DNA of 64,000 nt, taken from NCBI RefSeq assembly GCF_019740355.2, contig NZ_CP091819.1, positions 434,001-498,000 on the forward strand, in the 5' to 3' direction. Within the stretch, counting starts at the first letter, position 1. Each line of letters begins with the position of its first letter. Shown piece after piece: positions 35,625 to 52,799 of this stretch. The translations under genes and the position numbers were made by a program. The DNA is from Paracrocinitomix mangrovi (GTDB taxonomy: Bacteria; Bacteroidota; Bacteroidia; Flavobacteriales_D; Crocinitomicaceae). The notes beneath the pieces were generated by a model. It searched no databases. It worked only from the letters and a program-made list of their open reading frames with translations, and was not told the origin of the DNA.

Positions 35625-35671
35625 GTAATTGCCTTGATATTTAGTTTTTTCAATGGCAATCATTAAATTTG

Positions 35672-35700
35672 ATCCCGACAAATCCGTCGGGATTTTTTTT
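35672..35700 (+). terminator. Rho-independent terminator of gyrA
   Basis: An ATCCCGAC/GTCGGGAT stem with a six-base loop and eight T residues. Confidence 0.85.
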
Positions 35701-35785
35701 AAGGCCAATTATTATGGCATAAAAATTGAACCTTGATTGTGGAATTAGAAAATTTTCGCATCAAAACAAAAAGAAATATTTAACA

Positions 35786-36988
35786 ATGAAGAAGATATTA
35801 CTTATAGCTGCAGTTGGAATCGTATCTGCGGCTTATTCGCAAAAAGGAAACACAAGTAGTGCCGGTATCGCATACGGAAACTACGAAAAAGCTTTTTTTA
35901 GCGGTGACATGGAAGAAGCTGCTGCAGAGTTAAAAGACGCTAAAGAGTTTATTGATAAATCGTATGTACACGAAGAAACTAAGGATGATCCTAAAACTTT
36001 GATGTATTACGGTAAAATCTATATCGCTATTCCTCAGGTTGCTGCGGTTAGTGGAGACGAAGTATTAAAAGCAGTTGACGGTGAAAAAGCTGTTCAAGAC
36101 GGGTTTGCTGCTTTAAAAAGATCTAAAGAAGTAGATTCTAAAGGTAGATATCACAGTGATGTTGATGATTATTGTAATATGTACAGATCAATGTTGGCTA
36201 ACCAGGGAATTAAATTCTACGAAGAAGAAAAATGGTTAGAAGCAATGGGAGGTTTAGTTGGAGCAGGTATGTTTGGAGAAGTGATGGGATTGTCTGATTC
36301 TATCTACTACTTCTATGGAGGTTTAGCTGCTTATAACATTGATTCAATGTCTACTGCTGCTGAAGCATTTTCTAAAACTTTAGAGTGGGGTTACCAACCA
36401 GGAACATCTGCTTATTACTATTCTCAAGCTTTGCAAAAGCAAGGAAAAACTGGTGATGCAGAGAAAATGTTGAAAGATGCAGTTGCTAAATATCCTAACA
36501 ACAAGGATATCTTAATTGAAATGATCAATATCTACATTGATTCTGATAGAAAAGAAGAAGCGGTTCAAGCATTGAAAGATGCAATTGCTTTAGATCCTAA
36601 CAATGCTCAATTAGCTTATACTGCCGGAACCATTTATGAAAACATGAATGATTTTGAAAATGCAGAAAAATCTTATTTGAAAGCATTAGAGTTGAATCCT
36701 AAAGATGCAAACATGATGTCTGCTTTAGGTGGTGTTTACTTTAACAAAGGAGCTGAGTTGAACAATGAAGCTAACAAGTTAGAGTTTGGAGATCCTAAAT
36801 ATGACGGAATGGTAGCTGAGTCTAAAGAATACTTTAAAAAGTCAATTCCTTACTTAGAGCAAGCTACTCAAGCTTCTCCTGATGATGTTAATTTCTGGAT
36901 TGCATTAAAAGAAGCTTACGGAAAAGCCGGTGAAGTTGAAAAATTCAAAGAAGCGAAAGCAAAAGTAGCAGAGCTTCAAGCAAAATAA
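35786..36988 (+). CDS. Exported TPR-repeat protein
   Basis: 400 residues from the ATG at 35786; the TTG at 35726 is in frame but would put 20 polar residues before the signal peptide (KKILLIAAVGIVSAAYSQ). Four or more TPR units cover residues ~190-390, for example ALKDAIALDPNNAQLAYTAG and SYLKALELNPKDANMMSALG. It is predicted to be periplasmic and to act as a protein-interaction scaffold. Partners are unknown. Codons look like those of a well-expressed gene, and a strong terminator follows. Confidence 0.75.
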   Translation: MKKILLIAAVGIVSAAYSQKGNTSSAGIAYGNYEKAFFSGDMEEAAAELKDAKEFIDKSYVHEETKDDPKTLMYYGKIYIAIPQVAAVSGDEVLKAVDGEKAVQDGFAALKRSKEVDSKGRYHSDVDDYCNMYRSMLANQGIKFYEEEKWLEAMGGLVGAGMFGEVMGLSDSIYYFYGGLAAYNIDSMSTAAEAFSKTLEWGYQPGTSAYYYSQALQKQGKTGDAEKMLKDAVAKYPNNKDILIEMINIYIDSDRKEEAVQALKDAIALDPNNAQLAYTAGTIYENMNDFENAEKSYLKALELNPKDANMMSALGGVYFNKGAELNNEANKLEFGDPKYDGMVAESKEYFKKSIPYLEQATQASPDDVNFWIALKEAYGKAGEVEKFKEAKAKVAELQAK

Positions 36989-37008
36989 TTAAGATCTAAG
37001 TATCTTTG

Positions 37009-37044
37009 AATCCTGATTTCCCAATGGAAGTCAGGATTTTTTTT
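37009..37044 (+). terminator. Rho-independent terminator
   Basis: A 13-bp stem (AATCCTGATTTCC with GGAAGTCAGGATT, one G-U pair), a CAAT loop and eight T residues, ending the TPR gene. Confidence 0.85.
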
Positions 37045-37063
37045 GTTATTACAATTCAATCAG

Positions 37064-37597
37064 ATGCTTACAGTATTTTCAGCTAAAGACTTTAGGTTGA
37101 CAGAAGAGCAATTTGCAACCTTATATGACATCATTATTCACGCATATCGCGAGACAGAAAGTGAAATTTGGGGAGAAAATTATGTGCGGGTTAGTGAGCA
37201 GGAGTTTGGAGCTTGCATTGATAGAGACGAAATTCTAGTTGCTTTTTTAGATGGTAAAGTTGTGGGAGGAATCAGATATTTTCATTTGAGAGACAAAACC
37301 TGGACCTTTAGTTTGCTGGGAGCAGATTTTAACCAAAAAGGCAAAGGAATTGGTCGCGCTTTAATTGATGCGGTAGAGGAGAAGGTGAAAGAAAAAGGCG
37401 GAGATCGCATTCATATTGAGGTATTGCGTGCTGAAGATATTGATGTAGAATCAAAAAACATTCTGAGCAATTGGTATCAACGTTTGGGATATGATTTGGT
37501 AAAAACCATTGATGTATTTGAAGTGTATGATGATGCTGATAAATGGAATAAATTAGCCAACCCTTCTGTGTTTGATTGTTATTTGAAAGCTTTATAA
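37064..37597 (+). CDS. GNAT family N-acetyltransferase
   Basis: 177 residues. The acetyl-CoA-binding motif A is visible as NQKGKGIGRALIDAV, followed by a beta-bulge strand (IHIEVLRAE) and the motif B region NWYQRLGYDLVKTIDVFEVY. The acceptor substrate is unknown. The ATG at 37064 is chosen because the in-frame TTG at 37043 lies in the T tract of the upstream terminator. The 3' end overlaps the convergent pseudouridine synthase gene by six bases. Confidence 0.8.
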   Translation: MLTVFSAKDFRLTEEQFATLYDIIIHAYRETESEIWGENYVRVSEQEFGACIDRDEILVAFLDGKVVGGIRYFHLRDKTWTFSLLGADFNQKGKGIGRALIDAVEEKVKEKGGDRIHIEVLRAEDIDVESKNILSNWYQRLGYDLVKTIDVFEVYDDADKWNKLANPSVFDCYLKAL

Positions 37598-38281
37598 GCT
37601 TATCCCCAAAACCTCCAAGTCTCTCTCCCAGAATTCGGGAAAATCTGCCATTGCAGTGAATGTTCCCTTAGTAGGATGCTCAAAAGTGATTGATTTTGCA
37701 TGTAAGTACAGTCTTGAATGTCCAAATTTGGCTTCAAATGCGTGATTGTGATGCCTGTTGCCATATTTGGAATCCCCAATAATTGGATGCGCTATTTTAT
37801 TCATGTGTTTACGCAATTGATGGGTTCTGCCTGTTTTTGGAATGAGTGATACCAAACTGTATCTGGCAGTAGGATAGGGCTCAACCTCCATTTCAACCTC
37901 TGTTTGTTGCAAGCATTTCAATAATGTCAATGCCTCTTGGTAGTTGCCTCTGTCATTTTTAACCGGTGAATCTATGGTTAATTCATCCGGAACAAATCCT
38001 CTTACCAATGCATTGTATTCTTTGGTGATGGATTGATCTGTAAACTGATTTTGATAGTAAACAGCTGTTGCTACATCTTTAGCAACCATCAATACTCCTG
38101 AGGTTTTTCGATCTAATCTGTGAATTGGATGAAGCTTGATAGGAAAAGTTTTACGCAATAGCTGTAAAAGACTTTCTTCGGTTATATTCCTGGCGTAATG
38201 CGAATGGTGAGTCAACAGATTGGCAGGTTTATTTACCACAATCAAATTGTCATCCTCATAAATTATCAGGCCGTTCATCAT
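37592..38281 (-). CDS. RluA-family RNA pseudouridine synthase, TruC-like
   Basis: 229 residues without an S4 domain. The catalytic Asp lies in HRLDRKTSGVLM, and the conserved Tyr and Lys/Arg regions are in KEYNALVRG and TGRTHQLRKHM. The compact single-domain form and the start LIIYEDDNLIVVNKPANLL resemble TruC, which isomerises U65 of some tRNAs; an rRNA target of the RluA group is the alternative. Start codons at 38281 and 38278 are equally possible. Confidence 0.82.
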   Translation of the reverse strand: MMNGLIIYEDDNLIVVNKPANLLTHHSHYARNITEESLLQLLRKTFPIKLHPIHRLDRKTSGVLMVAKDVATAVYYQNQFTDQSITKEYNALVRGFVPDELTIDSPVKNDRGNYQEALTLLKCLQQTEVEMEVEPYPTARYSLVSLIPKTGRTHQLRKHMNKIAHPIIGDSKYGNRHHNHAFEAKFGHSRLYLHAKSITFEHPTKGTFTAMADFPEFWERDLEVLGISL

Positions 38282-38387
38282 CTTGCGAAACTACTTTAAA
38301 AAGTAATTGCACCATCTTTTTTTCAATTGATGTAACTTTTTAGTTGTAATTGACACTTACCTATTAAATAGGGAAACTTTCCTTTTG

Positions 38388-38924
38388 ATGGATAAAAAGA
38401 AACAAGAAGAATTTTTAAAGCTGTATGAACCCATACATGACAGATTCGAAAGATTCTGTAGAGCTCGTGTGTATGGTGACATGGACTATAAAGATTTGAT
38501 GAATGAAACTTTGTTAAAGGCCTATCAAAAATTTGATACGCTCAGAAACAAACAAGCATTCTTATCTTTTTTATTTAGCATTAGTGTTAGAATCCTGGCC
38601 AATAACAATCGCAAAATCAAAGAAAGTGTTACGGATATTGATGTAGCAAATCTTCAGCTAAAGGATCATCACAATGAAGCTGACAAAAGTGCTGAGATTT
38701 ATATGCTACATAAGGCTTTGGCAATGTTGCCGGATGAGCAAAGAGAGAGTATCATTTTATTTGAAATTAGCGGATTCAGTATCAAGGAAATAGCAAAGAT
38801 TCAATCAGCATCTGAAACGGCGGTAAGGCAAAGATTGAGAAGAGGAAGACTGAAGTTGCGAGAAATTTTAATGCCGACTGTAGTTTCTGTGAATGCTAAT
38901 AAAACAGGGGAGGACAAGCTATGA
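38388..38924 (+). CDS. ECF-type RNA polymerase sigma factor
   Basis: 178 residues. Region 2 (about 10-75) has FCRARVYGDMDYKDLMNETLLKAY, for core binding and -10 recognition. Region 4 (about 110-165) has LAMLPDEQRESIILFEISGFS followed by a helix-turn-helix (IKEIAKIQSASETAVRQRL). It overlaps the next gene by four bases, and that gene encodes a membrane protein, the usual arrangement of an ECF sigma factor with its membrane anti-sigma or accessory protein. The start is the ATG at 38388; a TTG directly before it is possible. Confidence 0.88.
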   Translation: MDKKKQEEFLKLYEPIHDRFERFCRARVYGDMDYKDLMNETLLKAYQKFDTLRNKQAFLSFLFSISVRILANNNRKIKESVTDIDVANLQLKDHHNEADKSAEIYMLHKALAMLPDEQRESIILFEISGFSIKEIAKIQSASETAVRQRLRRGRLKLREILMPTVVSVNANKTGEDKL

Positions 38925-40168
38925 ATGAGGAACAAAAATTAGATCAGTTGTTTGCACTTGCTAGAGAACAAGCGCCGGAAGTGTCTTTTGATGAAACTAA
39001 AAAACGCTTTTTAGGAGCTGCTGTACTTGCTGCCGGAGGAGTTTTGGCCACTAAGGGAATTATCAAATTATTGACAACTAAAAAATGGATCATTATGATT
39101 AGTGGAATTACTGTAATTACGAGCGGTGCAGTGGTAGCAACAAGCCTAATGTCTTCAGGTGAAGAGATTGTTGCAGAAAACCGTTTGATTGAAAACAACA
39201 ATTTAGTAACATCTGTATTGACAGATTCTGTTGCTATAGAAGAACAGATGGTGGAAGAGCAAATGGTAAATAAAGAAGATACTTTTGTTTACACCCCAAA
39301 CAATGCATTTGTAGCACCTGTTGATATTACTGAATTAGAAGTAATAGCATTGGCGCCTCAACATCAAGAAATACCAATGATTGCCTTTGTGGATGACGAT
39401 ACCAATAAGGTAGTGAAAGCAAAGGATGAAGATTACACCAATAAATACGTAATCACCAGAAAAACTACAGAAGCCGAATTTGATGCGATTAAAAAATCTG
39501 CAGAAGAAGCCGGTATTGACTTTAGTTATTCAGTTAAATCATCTGATGATAGACTAGACAAGTTCTCTATTCATATGAAAATGAAGCATAAAAGAGAAGA
39601 TGGCAAATACAATAGATGTACTGCTAATTACCAAATTGACTATGAAGATGATGATGCAGATGACAGCAGATTTGTATTTGGTTGGTTGGCAGATGATGAT
39701 GGAAAAGCTGTTAAATTCAGATCGGGTGAAAAATCAAACATAAACAGAGGACCTGATTGCAATTGCGGCGGAATAATTGAGATTCCTGAAATTCCTGAGG
39801 TTCCAAACTTTGAATTTGACTTTGATTTCAGTGATTTAAATTTTGCAGATTCAATTTGTATTGAGATTCCGGATGTTGATTTCACGTTCAATTATGACGG
39901 AATGCATTTAAATAGAATTCCGGGTGGTACCAGTACATTGGTGATTGATTTAGAAGGTTTAAATGAAAGCATGCGTGAACTGCAAAAGGACCTGGATCAA
40001 ATGAACAAGGATCTACAAGAAGAAACCAAAGAGTTGCTGCAAGAGGTGAATGAAGAACTAAAGAAATTACAGAAAGAGTTAGAGGAGGAGATGAAAGAAA
40101 TTGAAAAGGATTTAGAAGAGCAAAAGAAAGCAGAAGAGGAGAAAAAACGCGAAGAAGAAAAAGAATAA
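38921..40168 (+). CDS. Membrane-anchored probable sigma-factor partner with acidic and coiled-coil domains
   Basis: 415 residues. A short cytoplasmic N-terminus (about 1-27) precedes two hydrophobic segments (FLGAAVLAAGGVLATKGIIK and KWIIMISGITVITSGAVVA). A long extracytoplasmic part follows, with an acidic stretch rich in PEIPE and FDFDFS-type segments (about 285-320) and a C-terminal coiled coil rich in Glu and Lys (about 350-415). There is no recognisable zinc-binding anti-sigma motif (HxxxCxxC). The four-base overlap with the sigma gene is the main reason to propose control of that factor. Confidence 0.65.
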   Translation: MNEEQKLDQLFALAREQAPEVSFDETKKRFLGAAVLAAGGVLATKGIIKLLTTKKWIIMISGITVITSGAVVATSLMSSGEEIVAENRLIENNNLVTSVLTDSVAIEEQMVEEQMVNKEDTFVYTPNNAFVAPVDITELEVIALAPQHQEIPMIAFVDDDTNKVVKAKDEDYTNKYVITRKTTEAEFDAIKKSAEEAGIDFSYSVKSSDDRLDKFSIHMKMKHKREDGKYNRCTANYQIDYEDDDADDSRFVFGWLADDDGKAVKFRSGEKSNINRGPDCNCGGIIEIPEIPEVPNFEFDFDFSDLNFADSICIEIPDVDFTFNYDGMHLNRIPGGTSTLVIDLEGLNESMRELQKDLDQMNKDLQEETKELLQEVNEELKKLQKELEEEMKEIEKDLEEQKKAEEEKKREEEKE

Positions 40169-40172
40169 GAAT

Positions 40173-40239
40173 TGAAAAAAGCCTATAATTTAAGCGCTAA
40201 GTAGTATATAGTAACCTTCATGGTATCAAGGCTTTTTCA
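40173..40239. terminator. Long hairpin with T tracts on both strands
   Basis: TGAAAAAAGCCT (40173-40184) pairs with AGGCTTTTTCA (40229-40239) with one bulged A, enclosing 44 bases. It can end transcription from both sides: the sigma operon on plus and the first small paralogue gene on minus. Confidence 0.5.
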
Positions 40240-40248
40240 TTAAGCAGG

Positions 40249-40280
40249 GAGGAACAGTAAAATGTTCCTCTTTTTATTTT
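40249..40280 (+). terminator. Rho-independent terminator
   Basis: GAGGAACA/TGTTCCTC stem, six-base loop and a T-rich tail (TTTTTATTTT). It is a second terminator after the sigma operon. Confidence 0.75.
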
Positions 40281-40671
40281 AAAACTGATTAACCCATTCA
40301 ACAGCATCTTCTAAATTATCAAATGCTTTAAGGGGATGATTTCTTTTTCTAAGTTTTGAATAAACAGTGAAAAGAATTTTTTGAGACAGGGCAGGAATCA
40401 CATAAGCTTCAGCTTTGGCCGGTCTTCCTTTTAATTGCACTAATTCTCTAGCTTGTCTGGTAATGGAAACGTATGATTCACAATGTATAATTCGTTTTAC
40501 ATTGCTATCCACTTCAAGTATATCATGAAGTTCAAATCCCAATTCGATTTCTTTTTCACCTATTTCTTGATTCTCAAAGTAGCGCATGTAAATGATGTCG
40601 TCTTCTAAAAGACAACCGCTAAACTTCTCAAATGTAAGAGGTTCAGAAACCGGAGTAGATGCTAGTGCCAT
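40279..40671 (-). CDS. STAS/SpoIIAA-like small protein, paralogue 1 of 5
   Basis: 130 residues, soluble. It is the most divergent of five related proteins encoded within 2.7 kb. The shared C-terminal half is visible as EAYVIPALSQKILFTVYSKLRKRNHPLKAF followed by EDAVEWV. The family pattern is a beta-strand start, an acidic middle helix, an invariant Gln-(Arg/Lys) and a final Trp; it recalls the small STAS/SpoIIAA-fold proteins often seen as hypothetical genes in Bacteroidota. This assignment is by pattern only and is uncertain. Confidence 0.6.
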   Translation of the reverse strand: MALASTPVSEPLTFEKFSGCLLEDDIIYMRYFENQEIGEKEIELGFELHDILEVDSNVKRIIHCESYVSITRQARELVQLKGRPAKAEAYVIPALSQKILFTVYSKLRKRNHPLKAFDNLEDAVEWVNQF

Positions 40672-40825
40672 TAAATGCTAATTTAAACCCTTGCTTGAAC
40701 ACTTTTCTTAATATTAGTTTAAGTGCAGTATTCAATCTATAGATACCTGAAATACAGTTAGGTTGTAAAATGAGCCTTGAATGATATAAACAATTTGGTT
40801 AGTTTATCAACATTTAAAAAGTTAA

Positions 40826-41197
40826 TCATCTATCTCTCAACCATTCAAGTGCTTCTTCGCGGTTACTAAAAGATTTTATAGGGTATTTGTGTTTTCTGAA
40901 TTTGGAGTAAAAGCGGAACAAAATGCGTTGTCCCAGGCTGTTAATGACAATGGCTTCTGCAATGGCCCACTGGTCTCTGTTTTCTGCAAATCTTCTGGCG
41001 TCATTATTAATGATAGTGTTAGCCGGAAATTCAATTAAAACTTTAAGTGGATTGCCAGTATCTGTAACCGCTAAATATTGCTCAACCGGTATGTGAATAT
41101 CCTCCACATCTAAGACCAAATCATCTTGATATTCTACCACGAAAATTTGATCGTGAGTGAGGTACACACGAGAAGTTTTATTAATGAATTCCTTCAT
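40826..41197 (-). CDS. STAS/SpoIIAA-like small protein, paralogue 2 of 5
   Basis: 123 residues. It shares AEAIVINSLGQRILFRFYSKFRKHKYP and EEALEWL with its neighbours. The position after the middle strand has NNDARRFAE, equal to the AAARKxAE helix of copies 3 and 4. About 155 bases separate it from paralogue 1 downstream and 106 from paralogue 3 upstream, so each copy may have its own promoter. Function unknown. Confidence 0.65.
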   Translation of the reverse strand: MKEFINKTSRVYLTHDQIFVVEYQDDLVLDVEDIHIPVEQYLAVTDTGNPLKVLIEFPANTIINNDARRFAENRDQWAIAEAIVINSLGQRILFRFYSKFRKHKYPIKSFSNREEALEWLRDR

Positions 41198-41303
41198 CTT
41201 AATTGATTGAGCTAATAGGTTGCTTAAATCGAAGATAAGAAAAATATACCAAACTGGTAGATTATTTGGTAGGCGGTATTTTTAAATTATTATTCGGGAA
41301 AAA

Positions 41304-41693
41304 CTAAAATTGTGACACCCAATTAAATGCCTCTTCATATGACTGAAAAATCTTAAAAGGGTGGGGCTGTTTGCGAAACATAATGTAGAATTTCAGTAAT
41401 AATCTTTGAGCCAAACTGTGAAAAATGGCAGCTTCTGCTACACAAACAATATTTAAAGATTCGGCATGTTTACGAGCTGCAGCTGTGGCAGTAGAGTATT
41501 TGCCAAATTCTGAAATAGCTTTTAAATTCTTATTACCATTGGCCAATTCATAGCAAGCAGCCAAACTGGCATCAAAGTCTTCAGGCTCAATAACGGCGTT
41601 TTCATGATAATACACAAAGACGATATTATCTGCCACCATTTTTACGGTAGAATTCTCGTTTTTAATCGTCTTATTTTGTAGTGTTTCAATCAT
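41304..41693 (-). CDS. STAS/SpoIIAA-like small protein, paralogue 3 of 5
   Basis: 129 residues. It is closest to paralogue 5: both have VKMVADNIVFVYYHEN/VKLVADNVVYVRYHEN and a SLAQRLLLKFY segment. The helix ATAAARKHAE is shared with paralogue 4. No catalytic motif and no membrane segment. Function unknown. Confidence 0.65.
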   Translation of the reverse strand: MIETLQNKTIKNENSTVKMVADNIVFVYYHENAVIEPEDFDASLAACYELANGNKNLKAISEFGKYSTATAAARKHAESLNIVCVAEAAIFHSLAQRLLLKFYIMFRKQPHPFKIFQSYEEAFNWVSQF

Positions 41694-41751
41694 TTAAGCA
41701 TAGAAATGTTTGCTAAATCAATTTAATAAAATTTAACGCGCGAAAAGAATT

Positions 41752-42168
41752 TTATTGATGTAAGTCGTATGTTTTCAGCCAATTAACCGCATCTTCTCGA
41801 TAAGTGAATATTTTTGAAGGATGGTTTTGCTTTCTGAAAAGGAGGTAAAAACGAATGAGTAATCGTTGTGGTAATCCATAAAACACAATAGCCTCTGCAA
41901 TACAATCTACCTGATGATCTTCCGCCCATTTTCTGGCTGCGGCTGTAGCAGTGGTATAAGTAGGGAATTCAACCAAGAATTTTAAGGGTTTATCTTCTGA
42001 CCATTTCAAGTAAACAGCCCTGGTTTCTTCAAAATCACTTATTTCAATGGTGATGTCTGTTTTATAAAGCACGTAAAAAATCTCCTCATCAATTAATTGA
42101 ATATAGGCATTAGTGGTACGTGTTTCTTTAGAAACATTACCACGCTTTAGATGGGAGGTAGTAGCCAT
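41752..42168 (-). CDS. STAS/SpoIIAA-like small protein, paralogue 4 of 5
   Basis: 138 residues, the longest copy, with a basic N-terminal extension of ~15 residues. It shares FPTYTTATAAARKWAED with paralogue 3 and ends in EDAVNWLKTYDLHQ. Only 58 bases separate it from paralogue 3, so these two may be co-transcribed. Function unknown. Confidence 0.65.
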   Translation of the reverse strand: MATTSHLKRGNVSKETRTTNAYIQLIDEEIFYVLYKTDITIEISDFEETRAVYLKWSEDKPLKFLVEFPTYTTATAAARKWAEDHQVDCIAEAIVFYGLPQRLLIRFYLLFRKQNHPSKIFTYREDAVNWLKTYDLHQ

Positions 42169-42271
42169 AAAAGTGGATTGAAGATAATTTTAATTTTGAT
42201 TAATGATGTGAAAATCAAAGGCTAATTTTGGATTTAGCTTATCTTAAAGATGGATTATTGAATTGTACAGC

Positions 42272-42565
42272 ATGTTCAAAGTGAAGGTTTTGATAGTTTT
42301 TACATTGGTTTTATTGACTTCGTGTTCAATAAGCATCCGCCAATACGCCAAAGCCGCCAAAGATTTATCTGATTGTGTGGGAGGTGTAAAAATGCCGGCA
42401 GATGAGTTTTGTGTTGAATGGAACAGTAAATGGGCTGATGCCAGAGAGAAAATGGACAAGCGTTTAGAAGGATTAAAATCTAAAAACCTGAGTAAATATG
42501 AACGTTTAAAGCATAAAGTAGAGGAGGTGGACTCCAATTTTGTAAGATCTACAAAGATTTATTAA
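42272..42565 (+). CDS. Small lipoprotein
   Basis: 97 residues from the ATG at 42272. The hydrophobic stretch VLIVFTLVLLTSC ends in a lipobox Cys. The mature protein is short and helical, with a Cys pair (DCVGG and EFCVEW) that could form a disulfide and a charged C-terminal helix. It lies on the opposite strand inside the paralogue cluster and overlaps the 3' end of paralogue 5 by four bases. A TAATTTTG box at 42223 could be its promoter. Function unknown. Confidence 0.65.
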   Translation: MFKVKVLIVFTLVLLTSCSISIRQYAKAAKDLSDCVGGVKMPADEFCVEWNSKWADAREKMDKRLEGLKSKNLSKYERLKHKVEEVDSNFVRSTKIY

Positions 42566-42957
42566 ATCTCTTTAATCCATTTAAAAGCATCATCATAGGT
42601 TACGAATATCTTGAAAGGATGCTGGTTTCTGCGAATCATGGTATAAAACTTCAAGAGTAACCTTTGCGCCAAACTTTCAAAAATGATAGCCTCTGCTACA
42701 GGATGAAATTTAATTTGCTCGGCGCGTCTACGACCATTGGTGGAAACTGTACTGTATTTAGTAAGTTCAGAAATTACTTTAAAATCCTGGCCTTGAGTAA
42801 GCTTCATAATGGCATCATATGCTTCGTCTAAATCTTCAGGCTCAAGCACTGAATTCTCATGATAACGAACATACACAACATTATCAGCTACCAGTTTTAC
42901 GATAGATTTTTTGTTGTGAACAACGCTAAGTGATTTAGACAGAGTTGCTTCGTGCAT
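42562..42957 (-). CDS. STAS/SpoIIAA-like small protein, paralogue 5 of 5
   Basis: 131 residues. Nearly every conserved position of paralogue 3 is kept (VADNVVYVRYHEN, AEAIIFESLAQRLLLKFY and the final KW), so this pair looks like the most recent duplication or the pair under strongest selection. It is separated from paralogue 4 by the small lipoprotein gene on the other strand. Function unknown. Confidence 0.65.
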   Translation of the reverse strand: MHEATLSKSLSVVHNKKSIVKLVADNVVYVRYHENSVLEPEDLDEAYDAIMKLTQGQDFKVISELTKYSTVSTNGRRRAEQIKFHPVAEAIIFESLAQRLLLKFYTMIRRNQHPFKIFVTYDDAFKWIKEI

Positions 42958-44691: not shown

Positions 44692-46239
44692 TTAAGGAGT
44701 TCTCATCTTACATTCAAACGATTCTTCTTGACCGTCTTCATAATATTTCAGCTGAAAGTTTCGCTCGTTTTTACAATATTTGATCGCAAACATTTGCAGA
44801 TGAGCCGCATCTTCTGCAATTTCTTTATCATTGGACAAATGATCTATAATTGCTTCCGAAACAAACATGATAAATTTACTTTTGGCTCTAGTCAGGCTTA
44901 CGTTAAATCTTCTTGGATCTAGAATAAACGACTCTTCTGAGCCAACAAAATCCTTATCTGAGACGGAATAACTCGCAATTATTAGATCTCTTTCTTGGCC
45001 TTGGAACCTATCAACTGTATCAATAAAGCCAGCCTCTTCGATTTCAATATCGGAGCTTAACAAAAGATTTTGAATTTGTGACCTCTGAGCTCTGTGTGGT
45101 GTCACAATCCCAATCCTTTTTTGAACGAATTCTGAATTTTCCAATTGGCCGGTAAGAGATAATTTGTAAAGGCTTGTAAGCCCGGCGGTCATTTGTGATT
45201 CAAATTGATTAGACACTGTATGAATTGAAGCCGGATAAGTGATTACTACTATAGGTTTTGTTGGATCTAGAATATCCAAATATTTGTCATTCCATATTAA
45301 ACTATCAGGCCAATCAGTTGGGCAAGATTCAGGTAGATCAATTTCTAATTGGTTATCAGGATTTTGTGATGTCAAATTACCATTGTAAAATCTAGCATTC
45401 GGCCATTCATTTATGTACAAGTTACTTCTGTAATTATCAACTATGGTTTGAGGCGTGACCCCATGTGTTTCTCGCATAAAAGTGTATATGCAATCATATA
45501 GACCTTCAGAATGATCTTCCATTTGGAATCCGTGGATTGGCCCTAACTGTTTGTCATCACCTGCTAAAACTAAATGCCCTTCTTCTTTTAGATATAAAAA
45601 ATAACCTGCAGCATGTTCTACCTTGACTTGAGAGGCCTCATCAATTAGTAATAAATCAAACCATTTTTTACTTTCCGCAGGGCTTCTCCTGTCGTTTTTT
45701 GATAAATTATAAAATTGCTTCCAAGTGCTTCCGCAAATAGAAATATTTACGTTTTGATCTAACCTGTCTTTCATTACGTCTGCGCTATTCGAGTAAACTA
45801 TTAGATCCTCAATTTGATCATTATCAAATTGGGTTCCTGACTGAGACCTAATCCTTGCCACTGATACATCAATATTAAATTCCCCTATCAAATCTCTTCT
45901 TCTATTTAAAACATCAGAAATATCTACTAGTAAATTATCAATTGCGGTCCATGTGCTGGAACCAACACCAATATTTAATCCTATTCCATTTTGAATGGCA
46001 TATTCAATCCAGCCAAGAACAATTGAGGCTAAAGTCGTAGTTTTACCCGTTCCCGGAGGACCCCATAGTAATGTAACTCTATTCTCAAAAGTGTAATTAA
46101 ATACATTTTCTTGCGAAGGATTAAGAGGATTATTCAACACTGGTGAAACTGTTTCCAACAAAGCGCTCGGGTCAACTTCGAGAGTTACCTCTCCTAAATT
46201 TTGGTGATCATATATTAAACTGTATGCTGGTTCAGTCAT
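44692..46239 (-). CDS. UPF1-like superfamily 1 helicase of a putative defence operon
   Basis: 515 residues with all core SF1 helicase motifs: Walker A GPPGTGKT (60-67), Walker B DEAS (200-203), motif III GDDKQLGP (227-234), motif V TVDRFQGQERDL (about 405-420) and motif VI RRFNVSLTRAKSKF. Motif order and spacing match the AAA_11/AAA_12 (UPF1/Dna2) group. There is almost no N-terminal accessory domain, so it may work in complex with the nuclease encoded eight bases upstream, in a different frame. Related genes elsewhere fuse a RecB-like nuclease to such a helicase. A single minus-strand operon with the methyltransferase is likely. Confidence 0.82.
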   Translation of the reverse strand: MTEPAYSLIYDHQNLGEVTLEVDPSALLETVSPVLNNPLNPSQENVFNYTFENRVTLLWGPPGTGKTTTLASIVLGWIEYAIQNGIGLNIGVGSSTWTAIDNLLVDISDVLNRRRDLIGEFNIDVSVARIRSQSGTQFDNDQIEDLIVYSNSADVMKDRLDQNVNISICGSTWKQFYNLSKNDRRSPAESKKWFDLLLIDEASQVKVEHAAGYFLYLKEEGHLVLAGDDKQLGPIHGFQMEDHSEGLYDCIYTFMRETHGVTPQTIVDNYRSNLYINEWPNARFYNGNLTSQNPDNQLEIDLPESCPTDWPDSLIWNDKYLDILDPTKPIVVITYPASIHTVSNQFESQMTAGLTSLYKLSLTGQLENSEFVQKRIGIVTPHRAQRSQIQNLLLSSDIEIEEAGFIDTVDRFQGQERDLIIASYSVSDKDFVGSEESFILDPRRFNVSLTRAKSKFIMFVSEAIIDHLSNDKEIAEDAAHLQMFAIKYCKNERNFQLKYYEDGQEESFECKMRTP

Positions 46240-46247
46240 TGTTGTAT

Positions 46248-48929
46248 TTATCTTCTTCTAGTTCTACGAGGCGCCCTACCTCCTATTAATCTAAAGGCGC
46301 TTTCTATATCTGCACTTTCAAAATCTTTAAAAACAGGATCGATAACAAGTGGCTGATTCAAGTCAAGTATCCCCTGCTCTAGCCCGAAATTGAACATTTG
46401 ACGATTGAATTCAGGTACTTGAATTATAACAAAAGGTGTTTCTGCGTTAGTGTTCAACTTTAAAATAGTTATTGAAAAAATCTGAGAAATCTTCATTCTA
46501 ACTTTTCTTTCAGGATAGTTAATGCCATTATCATTCAATCTCTGAAGTGCTTCTTGAAAGGTCAATCCTAAGCCAGCATACCAATATTCATGTATACTTG
46601 ATTCGCTATTTTCGTTTGAAATGCAACAAAGGAAATCACCTTCCTTCATTTTACAATCTCTGGAATCATCTGAAAATTCGAATGCATAAATGGTTTCACC
46701 AACAAGTGAGTCGTCCTCATCTCTCAATTCTTGAATTTGTATTTCAAAATCTTCAGTATTCTCAATAAGGCCCCTAATTGAAATAAACCTTGCTTCTTTT
46801 TCTTCAATCGGTAATGAAGTTGCATGCATGTTTTCAATCTCCCTCGTAATTGCATTTAACTTGTTGAATGTTACGAGATTTCTCGAAGTCTGAGGGACAT
46901 TCATCTGTCTAGGATTTGCAGCAGAAAAAGGCGCCTTTTTTAATTTCAATTGATCACCACAATGTTCTCTTAATTTCATTACAACATTTTGAAGAGCTCT
47001 CAAATGAGTTTTTACGGCTCTCTTAATTCCTTCATAGATTTCATCTCTGGTGTACCGTAATCCACCATTCTGTTGAGAATGTTTCAAGAATACGTCATCT
47101 TTCCATAGTTCATATGCTCTTTCAAAAGGGATCTGGTCATTTAAAGGAGTCGAAAACCCAAAGGATTGAAAATACTTGAAGTTTTCTCCATCTTCATTTT
47201 GATTTGGAAAAAATGTATTAGCTGTTTCAATTAAGGTATAATCATGATAGATCGGTAACCCGACTAATTGTCTAACAACCTGTTTTACTATAGTTCCTGG
47301 TTGCGATTTGAAAGATTCCTGATCCGGTAAAACGCTATCAGGTGGAAAGAGTCTTATGAGCAGTTCAATTCTTTCAATGACATCCGGATGATCCATATGT
47401 CTTTCAATCATCCTTATAAATTGCTTTGATTCTAACTGGCTCCAAAAAAAAGCATGTACTCTCATTTTTCCAAATTGACTATCCCTTTCTCCCGCAGCTC
47501 TTCTTTGATTTCTTATTTCTTCATTATCTGTATTAGCTTCAAAATACCAGCTTGAAACGAGATCAATAAACTCTATTAGCCTATTTCTTTCTGTGTCTGG
47601 GTTCAATTGTTCGACTCTTTCAGTAATAAATACATGTTCATCAACAATAGGAGAATCTCCTTGATTTCGAGGAGGCTTAAAATAAACACGTTTCGCACCA
47701 AGAGCGAAAGTTATTCCTGATCCTGGATCAAAATGAACCGTTAGAAAAACACTCATGTCGACCCAATTCGGCATCAGTTGTGTTGTCCTTTCTGTCACAA
47801 TTTTTGGTTCATTATCTATTATGGCGCTTACCCTTGCGTTTAAGGCTAATTCTTCAGCTTTTAATTGGTGATTTACAACCTTAGCATGTTTCCAAGTATC
47901 AGAATTGTTCGAAATGTTTGTGGATAAATCTGAACATGTATTAATCCCGGAGCTTCTTAATAAGTCCGCCTGCGTTTTATTAAGCCAGGGAATTTTTGAT
48001 AAATGGTCATCATTTTCAGCCATGTCTTTACAATACCGCAAGTATTGACATAGTTGACATTTAGAGCTTACATGCCATCCAACGTCTATCGGTGGAGTTT
48101 CCAGAAGAGGAATCATTTTTTCGTCTAAAAATCTCCTGACATGAACCTCATAAACTTCAAATGGAACTGGGATTAATGTATCGTTTAGTGCAGCAAGAGT
48201 TGGGTTAGCATTCCCTTCTGCCTCAAATCGTCTAGTTAGATTTCTAAATTCGTTTACATCATGACTACCAGGCCAAATAAGACCTCTAGCGCTAACCCGA
48301 TATTTATCGCTGAGATTATTTTCACGTATGAATGCATCTAACGCAAGCGCATAAAAAGTCACTTCAGTAAAGTGCTTTAATGACGCTTGAGCAGCCATTT
48401 TCACATCAATTATGTGCAGTTCATATTGTGGAGGGGGGTCATTATCAGTCTGAATTAAAGGAGCACCTGTATCATATTCTTGAATCCATATTATATCTGG
48501 AATAGCCTTTGAGGGTTCAATACCAAATCTAGTGTTTGCTTCAACTAATTTATCTGAGACGGACTGCGGAGTTGCAAAGCTCGCTTCAATTATTGCATTT
48601 GGCGGCGTATCCTGATTCAAGATATCTATAAGATTATTAATAGTTTTGAATTCTTTTACGCCAAGTCTTTCATTAATTCCTTCGTGTCTTTCAAAACTTA
48701 CATTATCAGCCCCGTATCCCGCAATTATGTCTTCATATTTATCGATCTCCCATTTGTTCCCAGCTTCTTGCATTAATTGAACGCCTGGCCTACTTCCCAA
48801 TGTATACCTATCCCCATCAATCTCTAGTTGTTCTTTTTCAGAATTGCTTGATAATTCAAATCTGAAAAACCTTTCACATTCAGTCTTAAATGTTTCTGCT
48901 AAAACTCTTTTGCTTAATCGTGGAGCCAT
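46248..48929 (-). CDS. RecB/Cas4-like PD-(D/E)XK nuclease with iron-sulfur cluster, multidomain
   Basis: 893 residues. The N-terminal ~300 residues look like a RecB/Cas4/AddB-type nuclease: PD at 144-145, IDVK (Asp175, Lys177) as the metal-binding strand and HFTEVTFYAL as the following QxxxY-like helix. Cys18 together with Cys291, Cys294 and Cys300 (KCQLCQYLRYC) gives the one-plus-three Cys pattern of an iron-sulfur staple. A helix-hairpin-helix-like segment follows (IPWLNKTQADLLRSSGI, 313-329). Residues ~385-560 may be a degenerate RNase H-like domain (FLTVHFDPGSGITFALG). The last ~330 residues are unrecognised. The layout resembles the TM0106-type RecB-like proteins, but with the helicase split off as a separate gene. 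Confidence 0.72.
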   Translation of the reverse strand: MAPRLSKRVLAETFKTECERFFRFELSSNSEKEQLEIDGDRYTLGSRPGVQLMQEAGNKWEIDKYEDIIAGYGADNVSFERHEGINERLGVKEFKTINNLIDILNQDTPPNAIIEASFATPQSVSDKLVEANTRFGIEPSKAIPDIIWIQEYDTGAPLIQTDNDPPPQYELHIIDVKMAAQASLKHFTEVTFYALALDAFIRENNLSDKYRVSARGLIWPGSHDVNEFRNLTRRFEAEGNANPTLAALNDTLIPVPFEVYEVHVRRFLDEKMIPLLETPPIDVGWHVSSKCQLCQYLRYCKDMAENDDHLSKIPWLNKTQADLLRSSGINTCSDLSTNISNNSDTWKHAKVVNHQLKAEELALNARVSAIIDNEPKIVTERTTQLMPNWVDMSVFLTVHFDPGSGITFALGAKRVYFKPPRNQGDSPIVDEHVFITERVEQLNPDTERNRLIEFIDLVSSWYFEANTDNEEIRNQRRAAGERDSQFGKMRVHAFFWSQLESKQFIRMIERHMDHPDVIERIELLIRLFPPDSVLPDQESFKSQPGTIVKQVVRQLVGLPIYHDYTLIETANTFFPNQNEDGENFKYFQSFGFSTPLNDQIPFERAYELWKDDVFLKHSQQNGGLRYTRDEIYEGIKRAVKTHLRALQNVVMKLREHCGDQLKLKKAPFSAANPRQMNVPQTSRNLVTFNKLNAITREIENMHATSLPIEEKEARFISIRGLIENTEDFEIQIQELRDEDDSLVGETIYAFEFSDDSRDCKMKEGDFLCCISNENSESSIHEYWYAGLGLTFQEALQRLNDNGINYPERKVRMKISQIFSITILKLNTNAETPFVIIQVPEFNRQMFNFGLEQGILDLNQPLVIDPVFKDFESADIESAFRLIGGRAPRRTRRR

Positions 48930-48934
48930 AGAAG

Positions 48935-49894
48935 TTATCTTTCTGGATTAACTTTTTTGTTCTTAACCTCTTTTTCAGTCAGCTTCAGAGGAATTCTACC
49001 TGTTTTCTGATTGGCAATAAAATACTTGTTCATCCAAATCACTTCAGTTCTAGAAAGATCATCTCCACTTACACCTCTTGTGCTGGTTTCAATAGTCTTT
49101 TTTACCCAACCTTTTTTAGTGGTTAAAATTGAATTATAAAGTTGATTTTCATATCCACTAATGAACACCATGCATTTCGCTTTATTTAGAATTTGAAGCA
49201 GCTCTAAATGATATTCTTCTTCTTCAATTTCTTCATCATAACTACTAGATCGATTCGCAAGATAAGGTGGGTCAATGTATACTAAAGTTGCTGGTCTATT
49301 GAGGAACTTATTGAATAACTCTATCGCGTCTTTGTTTTCAATTCTAACATTTCGTAGACGTTCAGATACTTTCAATAGTCTTTCAGGTAAATTATACCAT
49401 CTATTAACTCTCGCCTCCTTACCATTTCTGGTGTAAGAATTTGACGTTGAAAAACCGCCTTTATTCTTTCCGAATGCTCCATTGATTGCCATCATTGATT
49501 TTACTAAAAACCTTCTCGCTTTTTCAAGATCATCAATGTTTTTATCTTCATTTCTTGAAATATCCAATTCCTCTGATGAATAAGGAGTTAATGCAACTTG
49601 TCTACATAATTCTTCAGAATTATTTCTTAACTGAGAAAATAATGTGGTAATCTCGCTATTTATATCATTGATGATTTCTATCTGCGCAGGTTCCTTAGCT
49701 AAAGTTAAAGCTGCCGAGCCGCAGAATAACTCAACCCAACAGTTGTGTGGAGGTAAATCTACACACATTCTCATTGCGAGATTATTCTTTGATCCAAAGT
49801 ATCCAAATGGAGGGTTTATTTTCTCCCTTTTCTTATTATTTGAGGCTACAGTACCATCAATTTGTTTCATGATTTTCTCTGTATCGTAATTCAC
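48935..49894 (-). CDS. D12-class adenine-specific DNA methyltransferase
   Basis: 319 residues. The SAM-binding motif I is ELFCGSAAL (55-63) and the catalytic motif IV is DPPY (208-211) in LVYIDPPYLANRSSSY. The GYFGSKNNLA start (31-40) is typical of Dam-like D12 N6-adenine methyltransferases (MethyltransfD12). The recognition sequence cannot be told. Its stop is five bases from the nuclease ATG, so methyltransferase, nuclease and helicase form one operon in that order. In that setting the enzyme most likely marks self DNA. Confidence 0.85.
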   Translation of the reverse strand: MNYDTEKIMKQIDGTVASNNKKREKINPPFGYFGSKNNLAMRMCVDLPPHNCWVELFCGSAALTLAKEPAQIEIINDINSEITTLFSQLRNNSEELCRQVALTPYSSEELDISRNEDKNIDDLEKARRFLVKSMMAINGAFGKNKGGFSTSNSYTRNGKEARVNRWYNLPERLLKVSERLRNVRIENKDAIELFNKFLNRPATLVYIDPPYLANRSSSYDEEIEEEEYHLELLQILNKAKCMVFISGYENQLYNSILTTKKGWVKKTIETSTRGVSGDDLSRTEVIWMNKYFIANQKTGRIPLKLTEKEVKNKKVNPER

Positions 49895-51122: not shown

Positions 51123-52799
51123 ATGAAAACTTTATACTTGTTGTTATTCCACTTCGCTTTTATCTCACATCTTGCTTTTGCAGACATTCCACTTTTAACC
51201 ATTGAAAAGATTGAAGCCTACACGCTTTATCCTGAAAATAGTTTTAGAATTGAAGCCAATGTAGATGAAGATATCATCATCAATCCAAAAGATTTGGCAG
51301 CCCTTAAAGGTTTGAAAATTCATCACATTGATTTGGTATATACATCTTACCTGGGAAAGAAAACATTCAACCAAAATGCAGTAAACAAGCAGCAAATTGC
51401 CAAATTAAAAGAGGTTTTTCCTCAAGCAGTTTCAGACGCTCCTACATGGAAATGTATTGAGCAAACAGGTGCTAAAACTAACAAAGAAGCCAAAACTTAC
51501 TTTCACGGATTTATTGTGCATTTTGGTCCTGCACTGGATTATCAGCATTTAAGTACATTTTTTAAACCTTTTCAAACTCCGGTCAAATCATTTACGGTTA
51601 AAGCCAATGATGGCGGTAACTTTGATTGTGGTGACGGAACTACTTTGAAAATTGGCGGTAACACCGTAACACACGCAGATGGTAGTCCGGTAAATGGTGA
51701 TTACACTTTACAATACAAAGAGTTTAAAGATCCTTCAGATATCTTGTTTTCAGGGATTCCAATGACTTTTAATAATGGAAGAAGAGATCAAAACTTCTCT
51801 TCTGTTGGGATGTATGAAATTAGAGCTGAGCAAGATGGGAAATCCTTAAAAATGAAAGCTCCGGCTGCTGTTGATTTTAACTGCACTAAAGTAGACAATG
51901 GCGTAGGTTTTTATCAGATGGATGATCAATCAGGTAAATGGTCAAAGAAGAAAGATGTGGCTTTTAGAGCTCCTTTAAAACTGCTTTCAAAGTTTCAATC
52001 AAAACTTGCTTTTGACGGAATTGAGTTTGAACTCAATGCAGATATCTACAATCATTATTCAGAGATTCAATTCAACGAATCATGCTGGGATTGGGTGTTC
52101 AAACACTTTGCCACACATCCTGAACTCAATGCAGTACTGGAAAAAATAGATGAATCTAACAGAACAGCTCGCATGACTATTGAGCCAAAGCAATTCACAG
52201 AAATGGTAGCAGATATCATCATGGAAGAAAAAAAGGCAGAAATGCAAAGAGAACTTGAGAGACAAATTGCAGAAGAAAAACAACGCATTGCAGAATGGCA
52301 AGAACAAGAACGCATTCGCCAGGAAGAAGAGCGTGCAAGATTGGAAAAAGCCCGTCAAGAAGATCAACGTTTTGGCAATACCCTGCTTTCTGAAGGAATA
52401 GATGAAGGACACACCTACCCTGCTCTGGTTAAGGATTTAAACTCTCCAGGCTTTGGCGTGTACAATTGTGATCAGGTATATGATTTAGAACAACCGCTAG
52501 AATTGTCTCCGGTTTATGTAGATGAAAACGGAACTGAGATTAAAAACAAACATGTGGTTTGCGTGATCGATCTCAACTATAATGGATCATTCAGTTTTCA
52601 CCCAAACAATATTACCTGTAGCGGAAAAGGAAGAAATGTGATTTTGCTTTTTACAGATAACAAAGACGTTTACATGTTAAGTGAAGAGAAATTCAATCAA
52701 CTGAGTTTAAACAACAATATGCGTCCAACATTTGCTATGCAAAACATGACATCAGTAATTAAAACTTCAGATGATTTGAAGAAGTATTTGAAGATATGA
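51123..52799 (+). CDS. Exported protein with a C-terminal coiled coil, unknown function
   Basis: 558 residues with a signal peptide (LYLLLFHFAFISHLAFA). Residues ~20-330 are probably beta-rich, with GGNFDCGDGTTLKIGG and SPVNGDYTLQYKEF resembling carbohydrate-binding or adhesin-like segments. A charged coiled coil at ~365-425 (EEKKAEMQRELERQIAEEKQ) interrupts the protein, and a final ~130-residue domain contains three Cys. No family recognised. It is expected in the periplasm or at the surface. No adjacent gene suggests a role. Confidence 0.65.
   Translation: MKTLYLLLFHFAFISHLAFADIPLLTIEKIEAYTLYPENSFRIEANVDEDIIINPKDLAALKGLKIHHIDLVYTSYLGKKTFNQNAVNKQQIAKLKEVFPQAVSDAPTWKCIEQTGAKTNKEAKTYFHGFIVHFGPALDYQHLSTFFKPFQTPVKSFTVKANDGGNFDCGDGTTLKIGGNTVTHADGSPVNGDYTLQYKEFKDPSDILFSGIPMTFNNGRRDQNFSSVGMYEIRAEQDGKSLKMKAPAAVDFNCTKVDNGVGFYQMDDQSGKWSKKKDVAFRAPLKLLSKFQSKLAFDGIEFELNADIYNHYSEIQFNESCWDWVFKHFATHPELNAVLEKIDESNRTARMTIEPKQFTEMVADIIMEEKKAEMQRELERQIAEEKQRIAEWQEQERIRQEEERARLEKARQEDQRFGNTLLSEGIDEGHTYPALVKDLNSPGFGVYNCDQVYDLEQPLELSPVYVDENGTEIKNKHVVCVIDLNYNGSFSFHPNNITCSGKGRNVILLFTDNKDVYMLSEEKFNQLSLNNNMRPTFAMQNMTSVIKTSDDLKKYLKI

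What the first reader, a model, noticed from the sequence alone, without database searches (positions are those of the whole stretch)
44692..49894. Three-gene adenine methyltransferase / Fe-S RecB-like nuclease / UPF1-like helicase operon, a candidate undescribed defence system
Seen: three minus-strand genes spaced by five and eight bases encode a D12 adenine methyltransferase (DPPY), an 893-residue protein with PD...DVK and a one-plus-three Cys pattern (Cys18, Cys291, Cys294, Cys300), and a minimal SF1 helicase with all motifs. Known: Fe-S PD-(D/E)XK nucleases with SF1 helicases occur in AddAB, Dna2, Cas4 and TM0106-type proteins, and DNA methylation plus helicase-nuclease is the general plan of restriction-like systems (BREX, DISARM, type I and ISP restriction). 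Inferred: the methylase marks self DNA while nuclease and helicase degrade unmarked DNA. The composition does not match a named system I know; there is no specificity subunit, PglZ, DUF1998 or phospholipase D protein.
Basis: partly seen in the sequence, partly recalled or inferred. Interest (0 to 1): 0.82.

Follow-up and report, generated by a model that had tools for sequence, protein, structure and literature searches.

The report
Methylase with split DNA2-like nuclease-helicase
Three neighbouring bacterial genes look like a rare, mobile restriction-type system that pairs a DNA methylase with a two-part iron-sulphur nuclease and helicase related to the repair enzyme DNA2; the pairing recurs in many bacterial phyla, but its defence role is untested.

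Summary
Confirmed: three minus-strand genes (gaps of 5 and 8 bases) encode a D12 adenine methylase, an 893-aa Fe-S RecB/Cas4-type nuclease and a 515-aa UPF1/DNA2-type SF1 helicase. Nuclease plus helicase are a split form of what most relatives found here encode as one ~1,420-aa protein. A DNA methylase lies within 350 bp of that unit in 49 of 62 loci examined (6 lack it, 7 are cut by contig ends). Among 90 sampled non-adjacent genes of the same loci at least 3 PF01555 and 2 PF02384 methylases were seen. In the window's own clade the order methylase-nuclease-helicase is kept, but the methylase is exchanged: the nearest relatives are 67% (nuclease) and 69% (helicase) identical yet carry a methylase of another family. 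The operon is sporadic (only the window's genome of 39 relatives). The principle is not new: Wilkinson et al. 2020 described Bad, a bacterial DNA2-like enzyme beside a methylase, and proposed a novel restriction enzyme. New here: the split three-gene form, methylase exchange, a relative beside DpdJ in a 7-deazaguanine (Dpd) locus, and a predicted, probably degenerate, DEDD/RNase-H-like fold for the central domain. Restriction itself is inferred.

The parts
48935..49894 (-). D12 (Dam-like) N6-adenine DNA methyltransferase, 319 aa, first gene of the operon
   Evidence: PF02086 E 1.9e-22; PADLOC MTase_II E 9.9e-55; TIGR00571 dam 79.4 bits, below its cut-off 114.85
49262..49273 (-). catalytic motif DPPY (residues 208-211)
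46248..48929 (-). 893-aa nuclease subunit: Fe-S RecB/Cas4-type nuclease, HhH-like linker, central domain, C-terminal domain
48012..48929 (-). N-terminal Fe-S PD-(D/E)XK nuclease domain (residues 1-306)
   Evidence: residues 2-306 against Cas4 8d3l_J: Z 9.8, rmsd 3.8, 190 aligned; model pLDDT 82.9
48399..48500 (-). nuclease motifs P144-D145 to D175-V-K177
   Evidence: D145, D175, K177 invariant in 35 of 35; positions
48351..48365 (-). E189-V-T-F-Y193, in the place of the RecB-family QxxxY motif
   Evidence: Y193 invariant, E189 nearly invariant in 35 rows; the equation with QxxxY is recalled knowledge
48030..48059 (-). C-terminal three cysteines of the Fe-S motif, C291-x2-C294-x5-C300; the fourth is Cys18 at 48876-48878
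   Evidence: all four invariant in 35 of 35; positions
46815..47762 (-). central domain (residues 390-705), predicted DEDD/RNase-H-like fold, catalytic acids largely missing
   Evidence: family B polymerase exonuclease domains Z up to 13.4, RNase T Z 11.1; domain modelled alone: Z 13.3, DnaQ 8h18 Z 10.6; Foldseek E 0.24 or worse; D401 and E447 invariant, no acid at 403 in 35 rows
44692..46239 (-). 515-aa UPF1/DNA2-type SF1 helicase subunit
46039..46062 (-). Walker A GPPGTGKT of the helicase (residues 60-67)

Best explanation
A methylation-linked restriction system with a split bacterial DNA2-like (Bad-type) engine. Shown from sequence and comparison: an adenine methylase is co-encoded with an Fe-S RecB/Cas4-type nuclease subunit and an SF1 UPF1/DNA2-type helicase subunit; the two subunits match the halves of one fused protein in relatives and evolve together; the engine sits beside a DNA methylase in nearly all complete loci of its branch, and the methylase family is exchangeable. 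Inferred: the methylase modifies a short adenine-containing site in the host genome. On DNA without that mark the nuclease-helicase, probably recruited or licensed by the methylase (the part that changes), loads on a 5' single-stranded end, nick or flap, unwinds 5' to 3' with ATP (as measured for Bad) and cuts the unwound strand, destroying phage or plasmid DNA. Because the engine stayed 67-69% identical while the methylase was replaced by one of another family, sequence specificity most likely lies in the methylase, as in Type III and BREX systems, rather than in the nuclease. The central RNase-H-like domain is probably a non-catalytic DNA-binding or gating part.
For: Operon and domains. Catalytic and Fe-S residues invariant in 35 relatives; Cas4-like fold. 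Fused relatives: nuclease matches the N-terminal ~900 residues and helicase the C-terminal part of the same ~1,420-aa protein. Methylase within 350 bp: 49 yes, 6 no, 7 cut, of 62; in the window's clade (L015-L030) the methylase is visible upstream in 15 of 16 and the helicase downstream in 15 of 16, each exception being a contig end (L018's methylase only as a 109-aa tail). Five of five full-length viral-collection loci examined also carry it. Nuclease and helicase tree distances correlate, r 0.98 over 55 rows, 0 of 999 permutations as high (most rows are fused, so partly expected). Methylase exchange: window (PF02086) against L015/L016 (PF01555) with no significant similarity between the methylases (E 0.055); at least 4 changes of methylase class on the nuclease tree. 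Sporadic: 1 of 39 relatives, the window's own. Absent from a same-genus locus with both flanks kept. Neighbours of relatives include Type I and III restriction subunits, Hma, Hachiman. Biochemistry of the Bad relative from PMC7430649 sections 14 and 22.
Against: No activity is shown for any member of this branch. The D12 methylase itself occurs beside the engine only in the window. The nearest Bad-like protein I could fetch (L075) has no methylase within 350 bp, though it has HsdR-N, helicase and SIR2 genes beside it; Bad itself was not available for comparison. Rows are not independent: L021/L022 nucleases are identical and several others nearly so. Methylases were detected with six seeds taken from these same loci, and loci with a methylase count even if a flank is cut, which favours 'yes'. 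In the window there is no defence island: the flanks are FG-GAP, DUF7793 and unannotated genes. Bad prefers a free 5' end, which incoming intact circular or protein-capped DNA lacks, so an initiating nick or end must come from somewhere.
Confidence: 0.68

Rival explanations
1. Two independent functions packed together: the nuclease-helicase is a stand-alone defence or repair enzyme that recognises ends, flaps or replication intermediates of phage DNA, and the methylase is a passenger (anti-restriction or regulatory).
For: Bad prefers 5' flaps and ends (PMC7430649); some loci lack a neighbouring methylase (L014, L033, L067, L075 without; L054 and L062 with one a gene or more away); D12 methylases are common orphans in phages and plasmids (193 phage and 125 plasmid records).
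Against: 49 of 62 loci keep the pairing, mostly overlapping or within 30 bp, over at least five methylase classes and both gene orientations; a passenger would be lost more often.
Confidence: 0.2
2. Accessory processing module: the system trims or degrades ends made by another restriction enzyme (Type I, Type III) in the same island.
For: HsdR-like or Type III Res genes lie directly upstream in several relatives (L019, L025, L042, L043).
Against: They are absent beside the window, L015, L016, L020 and L023; the window has no other restriction gene next to it.
Confidence: 0.07
3. Housekeeping DNA repair (DNA2/AddAB-like) with a methylase that regulates it.
For: DNA2-type architecture; solved relatives are DNA2 and UPF1.
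Against: Rare and sporadic: 4 of 395 genomes of the phylum and 4 of 395 of the class including the window's own, 1 of 39 relatives; carried on plasmids and viral-collection contigs.
Confidence: 0.05

Closest known systems
Bad, bacterial DNA2-like helicase-nuclease of Geobacillus stearothermophilus (Wilkinson et al. 2020, PMC7430649; sections 14 and 22 read in full, other passages seen)
   Same: N-terminal Fe-S RecB-family nuclease with four cysteines, central domain of unknown function, SF1B helicase; a DNA methylase gene next door; proposed as part of a novel restriction enzyme. A Bad-like protein found here (L075, 1,274 aa) has D150 and Walker A K819 against Bad's D150 and K815 and aligns with both window proteins (nuclease E 3.6e-20, helicase E 1.1e-39).
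   Different: Here nuclease and helicase are separate genes; the methylase is D12, not the Type III Mod-like one named for Bad; the branch is distant (21% and 28% identity to L075).
Fused ~1,420-aa nuclease-helicase plus ~375-aa PF01555 methylase pairs (unnamed; L005, L007, L038-L072 and others)
   Same: Same two engine parts in the same order, with a methylase beside them.
   Different: One polypeptide, about 20-25% identical to the window's nuclease; methylase usually convergent (24 of 29 with the M375 class).
Dpd 7-deazaguanine DNA modification-restriction system
   Same: In the Skermanella Dpd locus (dpdA, dpdB, queE annotated) a 771-aa homologue of the nuclease precedes a 2,113-aa protein whose first ~460 residues are the same helicase; PADLOC's DpdJ model is the best PADLOC match of the window helicase (170.8 bits).
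   Different: No DpdA-K modification genes in the window operon; methylation replaces base exchange. NCBIfam DpdJ matched only residues 700-1394 of the Skermanella protein, 311 bits against a cut-off of 800.
TM0106 family RecB-like nuclease (TIGR03491)
   Same: Shared Fe-S/HhH segment, residues 289-378; 18 of 35 relatives match at E<=0.01.
   Different: Below the family cut-off (34.9 against 97.45 bits).
UvrD-Cas4-like fusions in defence contexts (PMC5704561, passages only)
   Same: Cas4-like nuclease joined to an SF1 helicase, proposed for defence.
   Different: UvrD (3'-5') type helicase, not UPF1/DNA2 type.

Membership tests
Bacterial DNA2-like (Bad) proteins | Fe-S RecB-family nuclease with four conserved cysteines | tested here: met
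   invariant C18, C291, C294, C300, D145, D175, K177 in 35 rows; Cas4-like fold
Bacterial DNA2-like (Bad) proteins | SF1B UPF1/DNA2-type helicase domain | tested here: met
   5'-3' direction itself not testable
Bacterial DNA2-like (Bad) proteins | nuclease and helicase fused in one polypeptide | tested here: not met
   two genes 8 bases apart
Bacterial DNA2-like (Bad) proteins | homologous central domain | tested here: inconclusive
   alignment to Bad-like L075 runs through it (window 5-724 on L075 4-648), but Bad's own sequence was not at hand
Type I restriction-modification | HsdS specificity subunit and SF2 HsdR motor | tested here: not met
   none among the three proteins
Type III restriction-modification | Mod plus Res with SF2 helicase | tested here: not met
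   D12 methylase and SF1 helicase
BREX / DISARM | PglZ, or DUF1998/DrmB with phospholipase D | tested here: not met
   no such domain in the three proteins or the two flanking genes scanned
Dpd | DpdA and preQ0 genes | tested here: not met
   none of the three genes; other window genes were not scanned
TIGR03491 (TM0106) | score above the family cut-off | tested here: not met
   34.9 against 97.45 bits
Restriction-modification in the functional sense | cleavage of unmodified DNA and protection by the cognate methylase | not testable with these tools
   needs plating, methylome and in vitro cleavage

The most novel reading that the evidence does not exclude
A general class of DNA-mark-guided, DNA-unwinding restriction: one Fe-S nuclease plus UPF1/DNA2-type helicase engine, fused or split, is plugged into interchangeable marking enzymes (D12 adenine methylases, several PF01555 methylases, and 7-deazaguanine insertion in Dpd). 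The marker supplies specificity, the engine unwinds and shreds unmarked DNA, and a degenerate exonuclease-fold domain in the middle senses or gates DNA. It would be the first restriction class that uses a true SF1 unwinding motor.
Probability: 0.4. Interest if true: 0.8.

Novelty: new variant of a known kind. Interest (0 to 1): 0.6.

Why it matters
Bad has been an enzyme with detailed biophysics and no known job. The survey here turns the 2020 suggestion (Geobacillus only) into a pattern over many phyla, shows that the marker is replaceable while the engine stays, and offers ready isolates and a swap pair (window against L015/L016) with which to ask where specificity sits. It also gives a testable fold for the central domain that the Bad authors could not assign, and ties the same engine to the Dpd system.

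Tried and rejected
Pfam and PADLOC on the 893-aa protein gave nothing at E<=1; Pfam on 35 relatives gave no nuclease or RNase H family, the only repeated match being DUF3701 in 9 of 35, best E 0.0011. No PDB chain matched the 893-aa protein by sequence at E<=1. Foldseek gave no match with E<=0.001 for the whole model or the central domain; the RNase-H-like reading rests on VIA-align Z-scores over Foldseek's top 1,000 and is marked as predicted. Families absent from those lists are not excluded.

First viral-contig scan with the single protein: none; with the alignment: 6 loci, 5 of them examined (L094 is partial and was left out). Phage collection: one record, with Dpd-type architecture.

Looked for a hypervariable specificity region in the nuclease subunit: residues 716-893 are less conserved (47-51% against 61-79% elsewhere, window against L015), but the same stretch is also weaker between L028 and L019, whose methylases are of one family, so it does not mark a target-recognition domain.

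Literature: searches gave no later paper on a Bad-plus-methylase system; this covers only the open-licence library, full-text words only.

Loci left out of the 62-locus count: L008-L011 (Dpd-type architecture), L006 and L068 (no intact nuclease ORF), L053 and L069 (same contigs as L013 and L014), and the loci fetched after that call or only as flanks. L010 was dropped from the helicase tree because my slice was out of frame.

Full report
Observation. The three genes exist as described: D12 methylase 49894-48935, nuclease 48929-46248, helicase 46239-44692, all on the minus strand with gaps of 5 and 8 bases. The methylase matches PF02086 (E 1.9e-22), the helicase AAA_11/AAA_12; the 893-aa protein matches nothing in Pfam or PADLOC at E<=1 and only part of TIGR03491 below its cut-off. 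The window genome has one copy.

Nuclease subunit. Among 35 aligned sequences, C18, C291, C294, C300, D145, D175, K177 and Y193 are invariant. An AlphaFold2 model (pLDDT 82.9, pTM 0.75) superposes at residues 2-306 on the Fe-S nuclease Cas4 (8d3l_J, Z 9.8, rmsd 3.8, 190 aligned). The Bad-like relative L075 carries a Pfam Cas_Cas4 match above the curated cut-off (27.2 against 22.7 bits). The Fe-S PD-(D/E)XK assignment is therefore well supported; the cluster itself is inferred.

Central domain. Residues 390-705 superpose on 3'-5' exonuclease domains of family B polymerases (Z up to 13.4) and RNase T (Z 11.1); modelled alone (pLDDT 76.7) the domain gives Z 13.3 and DnaQ 8h18 Z 10.6. The tool's note puts the usual best Z of models without a clear Foldseek match at 7 to 8. 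Against it: Foldseek's own E-values are 0.24 or worse. D401 and E447 are invariant but no row has an acid at position 403, and no further DEDD acids were recognised by eye, so the domain is probably not an active exonuclease. The Bad authors wrote that this central domain has no known homology (PMC7430649 Discussion).

Fused relatives. tblastn and a genome-wide scan found relatives in which nuclease and helicase are one protein: in L012, L013, L005, L007 and L014 the window nuclease aligns to the first ~900-1,040 residues and the helicase to the last ~500-550 of a 1,415-1,645 aa ORF. The scan of 84,980 species genomes (one degenerate pattern, so not exhaustive) gave 58 loci. Sixteen (L015-L030) are 44-67% identical to the window nuclease and have it as a separate gene; nearly all others have the fusion. 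The nuclease tree (56 rows, SH-aLRT, quick search) places the window with L015 and L016 (100) inside a 13-row split clade (100) whose records are labelled Bacteroidota, Acidobacteriota, Nitrospirota, Bacillota, Thermodesulfobacteriota, Synergistota, Pseudomonadota and Chloroflexota. Many are metagenome bins; the identical L021 and L022 from two phyla may be recent transfer or mis-binning.

Methylase association. With phmmer (over 90 bits to any of six methylase seeds taken from these loci), 49 of 62 loci have a methylase within 350 bp of the nuclease-helicase, 6 with at least 1.2 kb on both sides do not (L014, L033, L054, L062, L067, L075), and 7 are cut by contig ends. Loci with a methylase count as 'yes' even when a flank is cut, which favours 'yes'. 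L054 and L062 have a methylase one or several genes away; L014, L033 and L075 belong to the other, Bad/Dpd side of the tree. Of the 53 methylases so detected among 367 ORFs of 200 aa or more outside the unit, 49 are the adjacent ones. As a less circular control, Pfam on 90 of 202 non-adjacent ORFs (250-1,100 aa) matched PF01555 in 3 and PF02384 in 2; only the 25 commonest of 115 families are shown, so this is a lower bound. Five of five full-length viral-collection loci also have the adjacent methylase, as do the two fused plasmid loci.

Exchange of the methylase. In L015-L030 the methylase is visible upstream in 15 of 16 (L022 is cut; L018 shows only a tail) and the helicase downstream in 15 of 16 (L017 is cut). 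Window against L015: nuclease 67%, helicase 69% (71% over the trimmed part), but the methylases are PF02086 and PF01555 with no significant similarity (E 0.055). Other classes are the 721-729 aa, ~375 aa and ~390 aa methylases, all PF01555 relatives. Five classes need at least four changes on the nuclease tree. The D12 class was seen only in the window. I infer that specificity travels with the methylase.

Mobility. The engine was found in 4 of 395 genomes of the phylum, 4 of 395 of the class, 1 of 39 close relatives (all three counts include the window's own genome) and 2 of 398 of the phylum of L024's genome, itself included. In same-genus genome G797 the genes on both sides are conserved in order (window 33096-42168 and 51123-52799) while the stretch between holds other genes, among them an S9 peptidase; G797 has no copy. 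GC of the operon (32-37%) matches its surroundings. Relatives have Type I R, Type III Res, Hma, Hachiman and other defence genes nearby (8 of 9 hand-picked large neighbours matched PADLOC at 1e-10); the window's own flanks do not.

Link to Dpd. In Skermanella rosea plasmid pSR-1 a 771-aa nuclease homologue stands directly before a 2,113-aa protein whose N-terminus is the same helicase and whose residues 700-1394 match DpdJ below cut-off, downstream of annotated dpdA, dpdB and queE. Three further loci (L009-L011) have the same two-gene architecture, but only L008 was shown to be Dpd by annotation.

Known context. Bad was purified, holds iron, moves 5'-3', unwinds and cuts DNA with a preference for 5' overhangs, and in Geobacillus lies beside a Type III Mod-like methylase (GCCAT); [quoted passage not shown] Of other papers only passages or listings were seen: PMC12458937, PMC12839542, PMC11090510, PMC13381803, PMC5704561. 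No paper found in searches takes the proposal further.

Verdict. A real, recurrent, mobile three-gene module; most likely a methylation-linked restriction system with a split Bad-type engine (0.68). It is a new variant of a kind already proposed, not a categorically new one. The restriction activity, the target motif and the role of each subunit are inferred.

Noticed in passing
window 40279-42957: A run of small minus-strand paralogous genes (40279-40671, 40826-41197, 41304-41693, 41752-42168, 42562-42957); the two scanned match DUF7793. A similar, differently sized set stands in the same place in same-genus genome G797 (L088).
   Followed up: partly
L008 8584-17237 (Skermanella rosea pSR-1): A ~770-aa TM0106/Bad-like nuclease gene precedes a DpdJ-like protein that carries an N-terminal UPF1-like helicase; PADLOC has no model that matches the nuclease. 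A possible unrecognised Dpd component.
   Followed up: partly
L019, L021, L026, L027 (HsdR-like gene scanned in L019 only) and L042, L043: An HsdR-like Type I R gene directly upstream of the methylase-nuclease-helicase set or of the fused form, with a Type III Res gene in the same place in L025; a possible four-gene variant. L021, L026 and L027 have an ORF of the same size in the same place that was not scanned.
   Followed up: partly
L075 1-8830: Bad-like 1,274-aa protein next to genes with HsdR-N, helicase C-terminal and SIR2 domains and no methylase found: a different, unstudied context for a Bad-like protein.
   Followed up: partly
L021 and L022: Identical nuclease proteins in bins labelled Desulfobacterales and Dehalococcoidales, and a near-identical one in the isolate Mangrovibacter plantisponsor (L020): very recent transfer, or mis-binning of the two MAGs.
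   Followed up: no
L013 / L053: Two related ~370-384 aa methylases flank each other beside one fused nuclease-helicase, perhaps a recent methylase duplication or exchange in progress.
   Followed up: no
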